Shown here piece by piece: positions 59,755-63,470 of a stretch of DNA of 64,000 bases. The first letter of the stretch is position 1, and each line of letters starts with the position of its first letter. The notes beneath the pieces are model-generated. The model searched no databases. It was not told where the DNA came from and was given only the letters and a program-made list of their open reading frames with translations. Position numbers and translations under genes: made by a program. Source of the stretch: Actinomycetota bacterium (GTDB lineage Bacteria > Actinomycetota > Thermoleophilia > Solirubrobacterales > Solirubrobacteraceae); the NCBI GenBank assembly GCA_018268595.1, contig JAFDWH010000013.1, positions 186,001 to 250,000 of the forward strand, in the 5' to 3' direction.

Positions 59755-60168
59755 TCAGCGGGCCCTGCCGCGCTTGCGGCGTCTGCGCTCGTCCGCGCTC
59801 AGCTTGCGGCTTCTGCGCGACGCGCGCGTGGCGCTGCCGCCGCGGCCGGTGCTGGCCTCGCCGTCACGCGCGGGCAGGCGACCGGCGGTGACGCGCTTCG
59901 CGTCGCGCGAGATCGCCACCCAGATGCCGCCGATCAGCACGACGATCCCGATCGCGATCAGCAGCGTCTCGCGCGCGCCGATCGAGCCGCTGTTGACTTC
60001 CACCTGCGTGGGCGCCGTCTGCGTCGGCGCCGGCGTGGTCTGCGCGGGCGGCGGCGCCTGCTGCGGGGCGGTGTTCTGCAGCAGGCCCTGCCCCCCGGAC
60101 GCCGCCAGCGCCGCCGCGGGCGTCGCGGCGAGCACCGCGACGACGATCAGCGCGACGATGCGGGCCAT
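59755..60168 (-). CDS. Membrane-anchored protein with basic C-terminus
   Basis: 137 residues: signal peptide (1-23), a Pro/Gln/Thr-rich extracellular stretch (about 33-56), one transmembrane helix (TLLIAIGIVVLIGGIWVAIS, about 68-88), and a strongly basic cytoplasmic tail ending RRRRKRGRAR. Topology: N-terminus outside, C-terminus inside. No enzymatic motif. Start 42 bp from the mobile element at 60210. Function unknown. Confidence 0.7.
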   Translation of the reverse strand: MARIVALIVVAVLAATPAAALAASGGQGLLQNTAPQQAPPPAQTTPAPTQTAPTQVEVNSGSIGARETLLIAIGIVVLIGGIWVAISRDAKRVTAGRLPARDGEASTGRGGSATRASRRSRKLSADERRRRKRGRAR

Positions 60169-60209
60169 GCGCCGACATTAGCGCCGGCGCATGGCGGGGG
60201 CGACACTTA

Positions 60210-60370
60210 GAACCTGTTTCAAAATGACTGACGGCCGGCTGGCACCGTCTCGCGGCGCCGGTTCGCCACCCGCGATGTTCGACGCAGCATTGCTGCGCCT
60301 TCACATCGCGTGCGGCGCCCGGCATCCACGATCCGACGCCATACGACTCGCCTCATTTTGAAACAGGTTC
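60210..60370. mobile_element. MITE-like element, 161 bp, at a stop codon
   Basis: Terminal inverted repeats GAACCTGTTTCAAAATGA (60210-60227) and its exact complement (60353-60370) bound a GC-rich core with no gene. The 3-bp TTA occurs on both sides (60207-60209 and 60371-60373), a target duplication of the TNA type used by some IS5-family (IS1031 group) elements. The core contains further self-complementary parts (CGCGATGT 60271-60278 with ACATCGCG 60303-60310; CGCAGC/GCTGCG at the tip), so it can fold into one long hairpin. It needs a transposase elsewhere in the genome. Confidence 0.82.
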
Positions 60371-61873
60371 TTAGGACGCCGCGGCCTGCTCGGCGGCGGT
60401 CTCCGGAGGCGCGTCCTTGTACGGGTAGGGGTTGGCCTCCTCCTCCCCGTGGTCCTCCTCGTGGTACACGCTCTCGGCGTTGACCGCCCAGATGTCGTGC
60501 CGCGCGCCGTCGCAGAGGTTGTCGACCGCCCGCATCGCCGTCAGCATCGAGTGGTCGGAGTTGTTGTAGCGATGCAGGCCGTTGCGGCCGACCTGGATGA
60601 AGTTCTCCAGCTCGTCGAGCCACGTGCGCACCGTCGCCAGGCGATCGCCGTACTCGGCGTCGTAGACCGGGTAGGCCTTGTTGACGCGCACGACGAAGCC
60701 CTTCTTCACTCTCGTCGGATCGGCGAGGCCGGTCTGCCCCAGCTCGCGCGTGGCGAACTCGACGAGCTTCTCGTCCTCCATCGTCCACAGTCTGTCGCCG
60801 GCGAAGCAGAAGTACTCCATGCCGATCGAGGTCTCGTGATCGTTCGGGACCATCCAGGGGCTCCACGAGCGGAAGTTCTGGATGCGGCCGACCTCGACGT
60901 CCGGCTCGTGGATGTAGATCCACGTGTCGGGGAACAGGTCCGGCCCGTCGATCACGAGCGAGACGGTCAGGAAGTCGCGGTAGCGCAGCCCGCGGCCGGC
61001 GTCGCGCACGTCGACCGGCAGCTCCGGGTCGGCGATCTTCGTGGTCACCGAGATCGGCAGCGAGGAGATCACCGCGCGGCACTCGATCGTCTCGCCGCCG
61101 GCCACCACGCGCACCGCGCGGTTGCCCTCGAACTCGACCTTCGTGACGGGCGCGTTCATGCGCACCTCGCCGCCTGTGGCCTCGATGTCGGCCTTCATTC
61201 TCTCCCACATCTGGCCGGGGCCGAATCTGGGGTAGTGGAACTCCTCGATCAGCGATCTGATCTTGTTGCCTCTGTTGCCGAGGAAGGCGGCCTTCGCGGC
61301 GGCGAAGAAGGACAGGCCCTTGATCCGCTGCGCGGCCCAGTCGGCGCGCAGCTCGGTGCACGGCACGCCCCACACCTTCTCGGTGTAGGTCTTGAAGAAC
61401 TGCTCGTAGAGGTAGCGGCCGAAGCGGTTCGAGACCCACTGCTCGAGCGTGTCCTCGCGCTGGTTGGGGCGCAGCTTCATCTTCAGCGCCGCCCACAGGT
61501 ACGAGGTGCCGGCCTTCACGAGGTTGACCGGGCCGAGCTTCTTCAGCACGTCCATGCCCTCGAGCGGGTACTGGAGGTACTTGCGGTGCCAGTAGATGCG
61601 CGAGAGGCGCGGCCGCAGCAGGAACTCGCCTCTCATGATCTCGTGCCAGAGGTCGTCGACCTCTCTCACCTTCGTGAAGAAGCGGTGGCCGCCGAGGTCG
61701 AAGCGGTAGCCGTCGCGCTCCTCGGTGCGGGCGATGCCGCCGACCATGTCGGTCGACTCGCAGACGATCACGGGCTCGCCGCGCTTGGCGAGCAGATAGC
61801 CGGCGGTGAGGCCGGCGGGGCCGCCGCCGAGGACGACGTACGGCTTGGAGTCCTGCGGAGCGTTCTCGGTCAT
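60371..61873 (-). CDS. FAD-dependent oxidoreductase, UDP-galactopyranose mutase-like
   Basis: 500 residues, ATG 61873. N-terminal FAD-binding VVLGGGPAGLTAGYLLAKRG and GIARTEERDGYRFDLGGHRF, then RPRLSRIYWHRKYLQYPLEG and FFKTYTEKVWGVPCTELRAD, HRYNNSDHSMLTAMRAVDN at the C-terminal FAD contact. The fold and the sugar-like KYLQYPL segment resemble UDP-galactopyranose mutases and amine-oxidase-like surface-polysaccharide enzymes. The acidic tail (HEEDHGEEEANPYPYKD) is unusual. The stop codon TAA (60371-60373 reversed) coincides with the target duplication of the mobile element. Located with a GT39-like gene, suggesting glycan synthesis. Confidence 0.85.
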   Translation of the reverse strand: MTENAPQDSKPYVVLGGGPAGLTAGYLLAKRGEPVIVCESTDMVGGIARTEERDGYRFDLGGHRFFTKVREVDDLWHEIMRGEFLLRPRLSRIYWHRKYLQYPLEGMDVLKKLGPVNLVKAGTSYLWAALKMKLRPNQREDTLEQWVSNRFGRYLYEQFFKTYTEKVWGVPCTELRADWAAQRIKGLSFFAAAKAAFLGNRGNKIRSLIEEFHYPRFGPGQMWERMKADIEATGGEVRMNAPVTKVEFEGNRAVRVVAGGETIECRAVISSLPISVTTKIADPELPVDVRDAGRGLRYRDFLTVSLVIDGPDLFPDTWIYIHEPDVEVGRIQNFRSWSPWMVPNDHETSIGMEYFCFAGDRLWTMEDEKLVEFATRELGQTGLADPTRVKKGFVVRVNKAYPVYDAEYGDRLATVRTWLDELENFIQVGRNGLHRYNNSDHSMLTAMRAVDNLCDGARHDIWAVNAESVYHEEDHGEEEANPYPYKDAPPETAAEQAAAS

Positions 61874-61883
61874 GTGCGTGGGA

Positions 61884-63470
61884 TCAGGGGAGTTGGGCTC
61901 TGGACGTCTTCTCGTACAGCACGGCGCTGTTGCCGACGGTCGATGCGCCGCGATAGAACTGCGGCGCGACCTGAATCTGCCGCAGCGTCGGATCGCCCGC
62001 AAGGATGGCACCCCACTGGGCCGACCGGCGCCGCACGAGTTGCGTCCACGGGGCCTTCCAGTTCTGGACCCCCTCGGTGAGCGGGCGCACGAACAGGACC
62101 TTCTGGCCGGGCCGCAGGTTAGCAAGCAGCCCCGGCAGCACCTGCACCGGCTGGGCCGCCTCGAGCCGGTCGAGCGCGTCGACCCAGTTCATGTGACGCG
62201 GGTCGGCGACGGCGCCGATCGGGTCCGCGTAGCGCAGCCCGCCGGGCATGTAGTACCAGACGAGCGGCGTCTGCTCGGGCTGTCCGACGAGGACGAGGTC
62301 GCCGCTTCTCATCTGCCCGCCGACCTCAGCGCCGATGTCGCGCACGTCGCTCTTGTAGCCGTCGACGTACTGCGTCGGCTTGATCCAGAACAGGCACACG
62401 ACGGCGATCGCGACGATCCCCAGCCGCCCGGCGCGCGCCATCCCGAGCGCGAGCAGCAGCAGCAGCGGCCCGACCATCGCCGCGAAGTAGCGCGAGGCCC
62501 ACGCCGGCGAGACCTGCGACAGCAGCCACGCGAGCGCGAGCGTCACGACCGCGATCCCAGCCAGCACGAAGATCGACTGGCGCTGGCGGTCGCCGCGCGT
62601 GCGTCTGGCGCCGAGCAGCAGCGCGAGCCCGAAGCCGCCGACGAGCACCAGCGCGACGGCGGGCCCGTAGCCGCCCAGCACGTCTCTGGCGATCTGGATC
62701 GGCACGCCGAAGCGCGGCTTGTTCGCCCACGGCGCCCCCGTGTGGGAGCTCTGGTAGAGCAGCGTCGGCACCCACGGCAGGTACAGCAGCGCGGCGCCGC
62801 CGAACGCGAGCGCGCCGTCGCGCAGCAGGCCGCGACGCTCCTGCCGCGGCGCGATCCACCACAGGTAGGCGAGCGCGAGGAACGCGCCGACGCCGAAGAA
62901 GATCCCCCAGCTGTGCGTGTAGAGCATCAGCGCCTGGCCGACCGCGTACGCCGCGATGTAGCCGCGGCGGCGGTAGACGAAGGCATGCAGGAAGCACGCG
63001 CTCGTGAGCAGCCCCAGCAGCGCCATCAGCGAGTACATGCGCGCCTCCTCGCCGTAGGCGGTGAGGAACGGCACGAGCGTGCAGAGGGTCGCGCCCATGT
63101 AGCCGGCGCGCCGGCCCCACAGGCTCCAGCCGGCCCACATCGCCGACGGGATCGTCAGCAGCGCCGCCGTCAGCGAGAGCCAGTGGACCGCCGTCTCGCT
63201 GCGACCGAAGGCGTCCATCCAGACGTGCAGCAGCATGTAGTAGAGCGGCGGCGAGCCGTCCTGTCTCAGCACGCCCGGGATGTCCGTCAGCGCGTGCGAG
63301 GAGATGCCGACCGAGAGGCCCTCGTCCATCCAGAAGGAGCCGCCGATCGCACGCGTGCGCACGTAGGCGGAGAGCGCGATCAGGACGACGAGCGTCGCAC
63401 CGGCGAGCAGCGCGTCGGACGCGCGCAAGCTCGCGAGGCGCCTGGAACGGGGGACGGCGACCGTGGCCAT
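61884..63470 (-). CDS. GT39-like membrane glycosyltransferase
   Basis: 528 residues from ATG 63470. About 11 membrane helices; an early acidic-motif loop WMDEGLSVGISSHAL follows the first helix, with PPLYYMLLHVWMDAFGRSE, the standard position of catalytic acidic residues in the GT39/ArnT/PMT group. C-terminal soluble part (about 400-528, GDLVLVGQPEQTPLVWYYMP) lies outside. Likely transfers a sugar from a polyprenyl-phosphate donor to a surface acceptor. Follows the partial membrane protein by 14 bp and precedes the UGM-like gene by 10 bp: one operon. Confidence 0.87.
   Translation of the reverse strand: MATVAVPRSRRLASLRASDALLAGATLVVLIALSAYVRTRAIGGSFWMDEGLSVGISSHALTDIPGVLRQDGSPPLYYMLLHVWMDAFGRSETAVHWLSLTAALLTIPSAMWAGWSLWGRRAGYMGATLCTLVPFLTAYGEEARMYSLMALLGLLTSACFLHAFVYRRRGYIAAYAVGQALMLYTHSWGIFFGVGAFLALAYLWWIAPRQERRGLLRDGALAFGGAALLYLPWVPTLLYQSSHTGAPWANKPRFGVPIQIARDVLGGYGPAVALVLVGGFGLALLLGARRTRGDRQRQSIFVLAGIAVVTLALAWLLSQVSPAWASRYFAAMVGPLLLLLALGMARAGRLGIVAIAVVCLFWIKPTQYVDGYKSDVRDIGAEVGGQMRSGDLVLVGQPEQTPLVWYYMPGGLRYADPIGAVADPRHMNWVDALDRLEAAQPVQVLPGLLANLRPGQKVLFVRPLTEGVQNWKAPWTQLVRRRSAQWGAILAGDPTLRQIQVAPQFYRGASTVGNSAVLYEKTSRAQLP

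What the first reader, a model, noticed from the sequence alone, without database searches (positions are those of the whole stretch)
60207..60373. MITE inserted exactly at a stop codon, with the target duplication supplying the stop
The element has 18-bp perfect ends. The duplicated TTA reads TAA on the minus strand, which is the stop of the flavoprotein gene. Insertion therefore left the protein length unchanged and placed a long hairpin just after the stop, possibly creating a new terminator between this gene and the one at 59755-60168.
Basis: partly seen in the sequence, partly recalled or inferred. Interest (0 to 1): 0.58.

Follow-up and report, generated by a model that had tools for sequence, protein, structure and literature searches.

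The report
Mobile stop-codon hairpin with conserved core
The 161-bp insert at a gene's stop codon is one copy of a family of mobile DNA hairpins in soil bacteria that share a folded core which evolution preserves on one strand only, while their outer ends differ and match the ends of different resident transposons.

Summary
A 161-bp element (60210-60370) with perfect 18-bp ends and a TTA target duplication lies exactly at the TAA stop of a flavoprotein gene; a congener has the same gene pair about 35 bp apart without it. The stop-codon placement needs no special explanation: all four TNA triplets (TAA, TGA, TTA, TCA) are stops on one strand. It is a family trait: 29 of 47 copies with paired ends have a gene stop at an edge, against 80 of 2106 other target-like sites. 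Relatives carry autonomous IS elements of two kinds (TNA-type with DUF4096, CTAG-type IS5-like) with such ends, so this is a MITE.

The unexpected part is inside. Elements with different ends share a conserved, oriented core not seen in the IS ends examined. In this genome two copies are 98% identical inside but have different ends. Pairing is kept by widespread compensatory change, and one-sided departures are G·U rather than A·C (281 to 12 overall; 23 to 1 between 15 pairs of close copies), with no such bias at unpaired sites. Selection therefore keeps one strand folded, as RNA or single-stranded DNA. A terminator role is not supported by a simple scan. Mechanism and transcription are untested.

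The parts
60207..60209 (.). left copy of the 3-bp target duplication TTA
   Evidence: sequence
60210..60370 (-). the 161-bp element (MITE); the strand with the stable fold and the oriented core is the minus strand
   Evidence: orientation from covariance-model hit G000:C4:246226-246352 minus
60210..60227 (+). terminal inverted repeat, 18 bp, GAACCTGTTTCAAAATGA
60353..60370 (-). terminal inverted repeat, 18 bp, the same sequence on the minus strand
60226..60352 (-). conserved hairpin region matched by covariance model R1 (positions 1-126, 86.5 bits)
60321..60334 (-). 5' half of the most conserved core motif, GGATCGTGGATGCC on the minus strand
60245..60259 (-). 3' half of the most conserved core motif, GGCGCCGCGAGACGG on the minus strand; pairs with the 5' half with a bulged A, U.G wobbles and a tandem G.A mismatch
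   Evidence: fold
60371..60373 (-). right copy of the target duplication; reads TAA, the stop of the flavoprotein gene
60374..61870 (-). flavoprotein gene region (FAD-dependent amine-oxidase fold, Pfam PF01593/PF13450) whose stop codon is the insertion site
59755..60168 (-). next gene downstream on the same strand, 137 aa, no Pfam match; a gene with a similar N-terminus follows the flavoprotein gene about 33 nt after its stop in G001

Best explanation
The element is a non-autonomous transposon (MITE) moved in trans by an IS5-type DDE transposase of the TNA-target kind. It inserted at TTA, the stop codon of the flavoprotein gene read on the minus strand, and the 3-bp duplication restored the stop. 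It belongs to a family of about 160-bp hairpins, found in the order Solirubrobacterales, in which an oriented hairpin core is combined with ends of several different kinds that match different IS elements. The core, and with it nearly the whole length, is under selection to fold as a single strand in one fixed orientation, most likely as RNA and possibly as single-stranded DNA. That fold probably serves the element itself (propagation, or an RNA of its own), because its signature does not depend on how the neighbouring genes are oriented. Shown: the anatomy, an empty site, copies, the target-duplication excess, matching IS ends, covariation, and G.U excess. Inferred: mobilisation in trans, selection as the cause of the excess, RNA rather than ssDNA, and any function.
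For: Ends and TTA duplication. In G001 (same genus, flavoprotein about 78% identical) the TAG stop is followed 33 nt later by a gene whose start resembles the small gene; in the window the gap without the element would be 38 nt. Among 47 copies with recognisable paired ends, lengths are 157-166 bp; 15 of 30 copies of the two TNA-type end classes have identical 3-bp flanks; 29 of 47 have a gene stop at an edge against 80 of 2106 target-like sites in the same loci, or 80 of 415 sites outside or at the end of coding frames. Autonomous elements of about 0.9-1.0 kb with a DUF4096 transposase have ends of the same type with TNA on both sides (L292, L293, L299; one degenerate copy in G011 carries the exact GAACCTGTTTC end, L203/L224), and DDE_Tnp_1 elements carry CTAGATGGTTGATTCC ends, 22 nt identical to a MITE of the same genome G009 (L241 vs L160). 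Core: this copy and C22 of the same genome are 98% identical over query 23-147 with different ends. Structure: on 56 aligned copies 93.8% of cells pair (35-46% when slid), 37 of 42 pairs have changes on both sides. Strand asymmetry: 281 G.U against 12 A.C without the two invariant wobbles; 54 of 55 sequences; 31 pairs G.U>A.C, 2 the reverse, 9 equal. In 15 independent close pairs: 23 G.U, 1 A.C, 21 compensated double changes against 3 not compensated; unpaired columns show C/T 11 and A/G 10, so no strand bias of mutation. Modelled strand folds better than its complement in 55 of 55. G.U excess is the same in all gene contexts.
Against: No autonomous IS with these ends was found in the window's own genome: no PF13340 match there, and the one own IS whose ends were read has other ends. 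15 of 30 TNA-type copies do not have identical flanks, and many of the matches are within the four TNA triplets, so chance alone would give about a quarter. 16 one-sided mismatches that are neither G.U nor A.C occur in the close pairs, so pairing is not strictly kept. The modelled strand is not preferentially on the transcript of neighbours: gene to the left points to the element in 49 of 81 and gene to the right in 62 of 80, so read-through RNA is often the badly folding strand; this weakens an mRNA role. The terminal G.U excess (36 to 3) partly repeats a few inherited differences between left and right ends.
Confidence: 0.66

Rival explanations
1. Ordinary MITE only: a deletion derivative of an IS5-type element with a palindromic inside. 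Core similarity is shared descent, and the stop-codon position is target choice plus purifying selection; no RNA or ssDNA function.
For: Ends, size, TSD and matching autonomous ISs fit. All TNA triplets and CTAG contain a stop on one strand or the other.
Against: The core was not seen in the first 150 bp of either end of 10 autonomous ISs read. It is shared across ends of different kinds. Compensatory and G.U-biased change between close copies is not expected of neutral copies.
Confidence: 0.2
2. REPIN-like element: the hairpin is recognised as single-stranded DNA by a Y1/HUH (RAYT-type) transposase, and the DDE-type ends are secondary.
For: Strand-specific folding and compensatory change suit ssDNA recognition; the REPIN paper reports hairpins in ssDNA or mRNA and common compensatory changes (passages of PMC3116915). 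T.G is less harmful than A.C in DNA too; modelled strand is also the more stable one with DNA energies, 55 of 55.
Against: Target duplications and end identity to DDE elements are not what Y1 transposition gives (general knowledge). No search for a Y1 transposase was made.
Confidence: 0.12
3. Mobile bidirectional transcription terminator that hosts retain between convergent genes.
For: 34 of 75 copies with both neighbours called lie between convergent genes; gene stops sit at the edges or at fixed places in the arms; copies without recognisable ends keep the hairpin.
Against: No U-tract and no significant terminator-like site in the window copy. Only one strand is kept foldable, whereas a bidirectional terminator needs both. 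The pairing signature is the same next to co-directional and divergent genes.
Confidence: 0.15
4. A fixed host terminator or regulatory hairpin, not an insertion.
For: It lies exactly between two genes.
Against: Empty site in G001; other family copies at unrelated loci; target duplications.
Confidence: 0.02

Closest known systems
IS5-family MITEs (for example MITEAba12 as a well-studied bacterial MITE of another IS; passages read, PMC6382973)
   Same: Short, no coding capacity, terminal inverted repeats identical to those of autonomous ISs, target duplications, uniform length.
   Different: Here one conserved core is combined with several kinds of ends, and the inside evolves by compensatory, strand-biased change.
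REPINs / GTAG-tagged REPs (PMC3116915 and PMC3733652, passages read)
   Same: Hairpins with compensatory changes; [quoted passage not shown]
   Different: REPs are 20-40 bp and tied to Y1 transposases (RAYTs); these are about 160 bp with DDE-type ends and target duplications. RAYT presence was not tested.
Correia/NEMIS and related small mobile repeats with RNA-level roles (PMC2229807, passages read)
   Same: Mobile repeats whose transcribed hairpins are proposed to affect adjacent mRNAs.
   Different: No sequence link was tested; here the folded strand is selected irrespective of neighbouring gene direction.
Rfam structured RNA families
   Same: Covarying stem with conserved non-canonical core.
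   Different: No Rfam match reached a gathering score in three copies with flanks at an E-value limit of 5.

Membership tests
MITE (non-autonomous DDE transposon) | terminal inverted repeats | tested here: met
   18 bp perfect in the window copy; paired ends in 47 of 86 non-redundant copies by the script's patterns
MITE (non-autonomous DDE transposon) | target site duplication | tested here: met
   TTA/TTA here; identical 3-bp flanks in 15 of 30 TNA-type copies
MITE (non-autonomous DDE transposon) | no coding capacity | tested here: met
   161 bp; no ORF of 60 aa or more lies inside the element
MITE (non-autonomous DDE transposon) | autonomous partner with the same ends | tested here: met
   met in relatives (L241/L160 22 nt in the same genome G009; DUF4096 ISs); not found in the window's own genome
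MITE (non-autonomous DDE transposon) | movement demonstrated in trans | not testable with these tools
   needs a transposition assay
IS5 family, TNA-target subgroup, as source of the ends | TNA target and DUF4096 transposase between matching ends | tested here: met
   L292, L293, L299 with both ends and TNA flanks; L203/L224 degenerate with the exact GAACCTGTTTC left end only
REPIN / RAYT system | GTAG or CGTC tag beside a 20-40 bp palindrome | tested here: not met
   ends read in 86 copies show other sequences
REPIN / RAYT system | associated Y1 tyrosine transposase | not tested
intrinsic terminator | GC-rich stem followed by a T-run, above chance | tested here: not met
   one weak site, 0.5 expected in shuffles
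any Rfam family | score at or above the gathering threshold | tested here: not met
   three loci searched, four matches at E up to 5, all below gathering scores and none on the element's core

The most novel reading that the evidence does not exclude
A mobile structured-RNA (or ssDNA) element: one folded, oriented core that has spread through an order of bacteria by taking on the ends of unrelated resident transposons, with the single-strand fold required for the element's own propagation. Stop codons are its normal landing place because its borrowed ends target stop-like triplets.
Probability: 0.35. Interest if true: 0.8.

Novelty: new variant of a known kind. Interest (0 to 1): 0.6.

Why it matters
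MITEs are usually taken as passive leftovers of their parent IS. A family in which the inside is the conserved, folded part and the ends are interchangeable would mean that the passenger, not the transposon, is the unit that persists. It would give a directly testable case of a structured RNA or DNA hairpin that rides on several transposases. It also explains simply why such insertions sit at stop codons in GC-rich genomes.

Tried and rejected
A fixed terminator was rejected on the empty site and the scan. An exact-end search suggested a single copy; this was misleading, because copies differ in their ends. A search for a full-length IS with two exact GAACCTGTTTC ends in 12 genomes gave only pairs about 55-171 bp apart and single ends. 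These include shortened copies of 55-113 bp, taken as deletions of the palindrome tip. The automatic arm extension ran into GC-rich flanks and its lengths are not used. A biased mutation of one strand was considered for the G.U excess and rejected on unpaired columns (C/T 11, A/G 10). A role in the mRNA of the left-hand gene was weakened by gene orientations. Plasmid and phage collections gave no match.

Rows dropped. In one search, 16 of 54 loci were left out by eye because of their host and lack of arms. One of them, L101 on a contig filed under Fibrobacterota, is probably a true member (48.3 bits), so that judgement was wrong for it; the best of the others scored 24.5 bits. Eight loci were skipped there for weak core matches, 13 as near-duplicates, and L049, L050, L052, L093 were left out of alignment A3. 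In one search, 39 of the 86 copies had no paired ends by the patterns used, or too little flank. In some searches and the pair count, one of 56 rows of A4 (the reverse-strand hit of L164) was dropped. A4 was made from 55 loci chosen to leave out most loci of the exact-pattern scan, though some are the same copies seen through other searches. Model R1 was trained in part on exact-pattern hits, so conservation of those 21 bases in A3 is partly by construction.

Literature: 8 searches on MITEs with stop codons and terminators, Conexibacter transposable elements, Solirubrobacter repeats, structured RNA with MITEs, MITEs with different ends, and IS5 CTAG. None of the titles or abstracts listed describes this family. 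Subscription journals are not in that library.

Full report
OBSERVATION. The window lies in genome G000, contig C4, 186001-250000. At 60210-60370 there is a 161-bp element with perfect 18-bp inverted ends, flanked by TTA on both sides. The right TTA is, on the minus strand, the TAA stop of the ORF 60371-62125, a flavoprotein with amine-oxidase and NAD-binding Pfam matches. As RNA of the minus strand the element folds into one long hairpin of -117.6 kcal/mol, z -12.7.

EMPTY SITE. In the same-genus genome G001 the orthologous flavoprotein (77.7% identical over 489 aa in the alignment) ends in TAG and is followed 33 nt later by an ATG whose first residues resemble those of the window's next gene (MSRLAALIVVLALAATPAAALA against MARIVALIVVAVLAATPAAALA, read). 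Without the element and one TTA, the window gap would be 38 nt. Orthology of the small gene rests on position and this N-terminus only: a tblastn search of the small protein found only itself in the 20 loci given to that call. In the four other same-genus loci read (G003-G006) something else follows.

WHY A STOP CODON. Every TNA triplet (TAA, TGA, TTA, TCA) is a stop on one strand, and CTAG holds TAG on both. A TNA-target element that hits a stop therefore always regenerates it. Of 86 non-redundant copies, 47 have ends recognised as a pair; 29 of these 47 have the stop of a frame with coding-type GC3 at an edge. In the flanks of the same loci 80 of 2106 target-like sites, or 80 of 415 sites outside or at the end of coding frames, do so. 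The coding call is a simple GC3-minus-GC2 rule, not a gene finder. Identical 3-bp flanks occur in 15 of 30 copies with the two TNA-type ends and identical 2-bp flanks in 5 of 17 of the CTAG type. Many flanks are TNA on both sides, so the fair chance level for a 3-bp match is about one in four, not one in 64.

PARTNER TRANSPOSONS. In 12 genomes PF13340 and PF01609 searches, and in 146 family genomes a PF13340 search (18 of 146 positive), gave loci whose ends were read. DUF4096 elements L292 (942 bp), L293 (931 bp) and L299 (973 bp) have ends GGACCTATCCCGG, GGGCCTATCCCGG and GAGCCTGTCTCAG, with TAA or TTA flanks on both sides. L288, L301 and L303-L306 show GAAGCTGTTTCGG or GAAGCTGTCTCAA ends. 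A degenerate DUF4096 element in G011 starts with TTA then GAACCTGTTTC. IS5-like DDE_Tnp_1 elements of about 1 kb (L228, L233, L235, L241, L242) have CTAGATGGTTGATTCC ends; L241 and the MITE L160, both of G009, share 22 nt. In the 150 bp read at each end of ten of these ISs I did not see the hairpin core (by eye).

THE FAMILY. From this copy, similarity searches found matches in 17 of 61 relatives. An exact pattern scan of GTDB contigs gave 54 stretches, of which I kept 38, all from records named as Solirubrobacterales or genera of that order; L101 was wrongly left out. Model R1 (from 42 sequences) finds 68 of 146 family genomes positive at E<=0.001 and 9 places at E<=4.5e-5 in the window's genome. 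Of 396 genomes drawn across the phylum, 6 are positive at E<=1e-6, all in this order: 5 in the window's family and 1 in another family. Only 8-24 candidates a genome were scored there, so counts are lower bounds.

DIFFERENT ENDS, ONE CORE. Ends fall into GAACCTGTTTC-like, GGGTCCGTCC-like and GATGGTTGATTCC-like groups; others, in G066, begin CTAGG(T/C)CGATT close to the core; and many Conexibacter copies have only short arms with GTGAGCG. The clearest case is in this genome: C4 (this element) and C22 are 98% identical over query 23-147 while their ends are 50-55% identical, at background level. The C22 ends resemble the GGGTC group and show no target duplication. How ends and core are exchanged is unknown; gene conversion between copies would do it.

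STRAND-SPECIFIC FOLD. On alignment A3, 33 of 42 predicted pairs have compensated changes. On A4, 56 rows, 93.8% of cells pair, 542 cells have both sides changed, and sliding the partner by 1-3 columns drops pairing to 35-46%. A4 was fitted to the model, so pairing percentages lean towards it. The test that does not follow from fitting is the kind of one-sided change. On 55 rows, without two invariant wobbles, there are 1765 Watson-Crick, 281 G.U, 12 A.C and 127 other cells, and 54 of 55 rows have more G.U than A.C. By pair, 31 favour G.U, 2 favour A.C and 9 are equal. The complementary strand would see each G.U as A.C. In the last 13 bp of the ends, which are outside the model, the count is 36 to 3, partly through inherited left-right differences. 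In 15 independent pairs of close copies, one-sided departures were 23 G.U, 1 A.C and 16 others; 21 double changes kept pairing and 3 did not (sign test p about 3e-6). G.U arose through both C/T (16) and A/G (7) differences, and unpaired columns show C/T 11 and A/G 10, so a strand bias of mutation is not the cause. One U.G wobble is kept in 55 of 55 rows and another in 46 of 55. Predicted RNA energies are lower for the modelled strand in 55 of 55 rows (means -128.1 and -95.4 kcal/mol), and so are DNA energies.

WHAT THE FOLD IS FOR. If it served the upstream gene's mRNA, the modelled strand should be the transcribed one. It is not preferred: the left gene points to the element in 49 of 81 called cases and the right gene in 62 of 80; co-directional cases are 24 with genes against the modelled strand and 10 with it. 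The G.U to A.C ratio does not depend on context. I therefore favour a role for the element itself, as RNA because G.U is a true pair in RNA, with ssDNA recognition as the main alternative. The window copy happens to have the modelled strand on the sense strand of its operon-like neighbours. No promoter-like site and no terminator above chance were found around it.

NOVELTY. The ends make it a MITE; the stop-codon habit has a precedent in GTAG REPs, and compensatory change has one in REPINs (passages). In the papers seen (search listings; passages) I found no description of this family, of a MITE core shared across different transposon ends, or of a G.U-biased strand signature in a MITE. The library lacks most subscription journals. 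I rate it a new variant of a known kind.

Noticed in passing
L101:3446-3572 (minus): A probable family member (48.3 bits) on a contig filed under a Fibrobacterota MAG; either misbinned or a copy outside the order.
   Followed up: partly
L206, L207, L208, L210, L212 (G009, G152, G013): Shortened copies of about 55-113 bp that keep both GAACCTGTTTC ends but have lost the hairpin tip, as if by deletion within a palindrome.
   Followed up: partly
L289:940-1839: A DUF4096 IS whose left end reads GAACTCGAATCACAATGAGGCGAGTCGTC; AATGAGGCGAGTCGT is also in the window element just inside its end. Shared origin or coincidence.
   Followed up: no
L119-L123 (window's genome, C11, C7, C13, C10): Copies with GATGGTTGATTCC-type ends carry the GTGGATGC / GCGCCGC motif twice along the stem.
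   Followed up: no
L067, L076, L077, L089, L090, L092, L094, L112, L164, L165: Conexibacter copies without recognisable transposon ends but with the hairpin intact; gene stops lie at fixed places inside the arms. Possibly old copies kept by the host.
   Followed up: partly
L156, L127, L171, L078, L174: Copies flanked by two different TNA triplets, often with a stop for the gene on at least one side, instead of a matching duplication.
   Followed up: no
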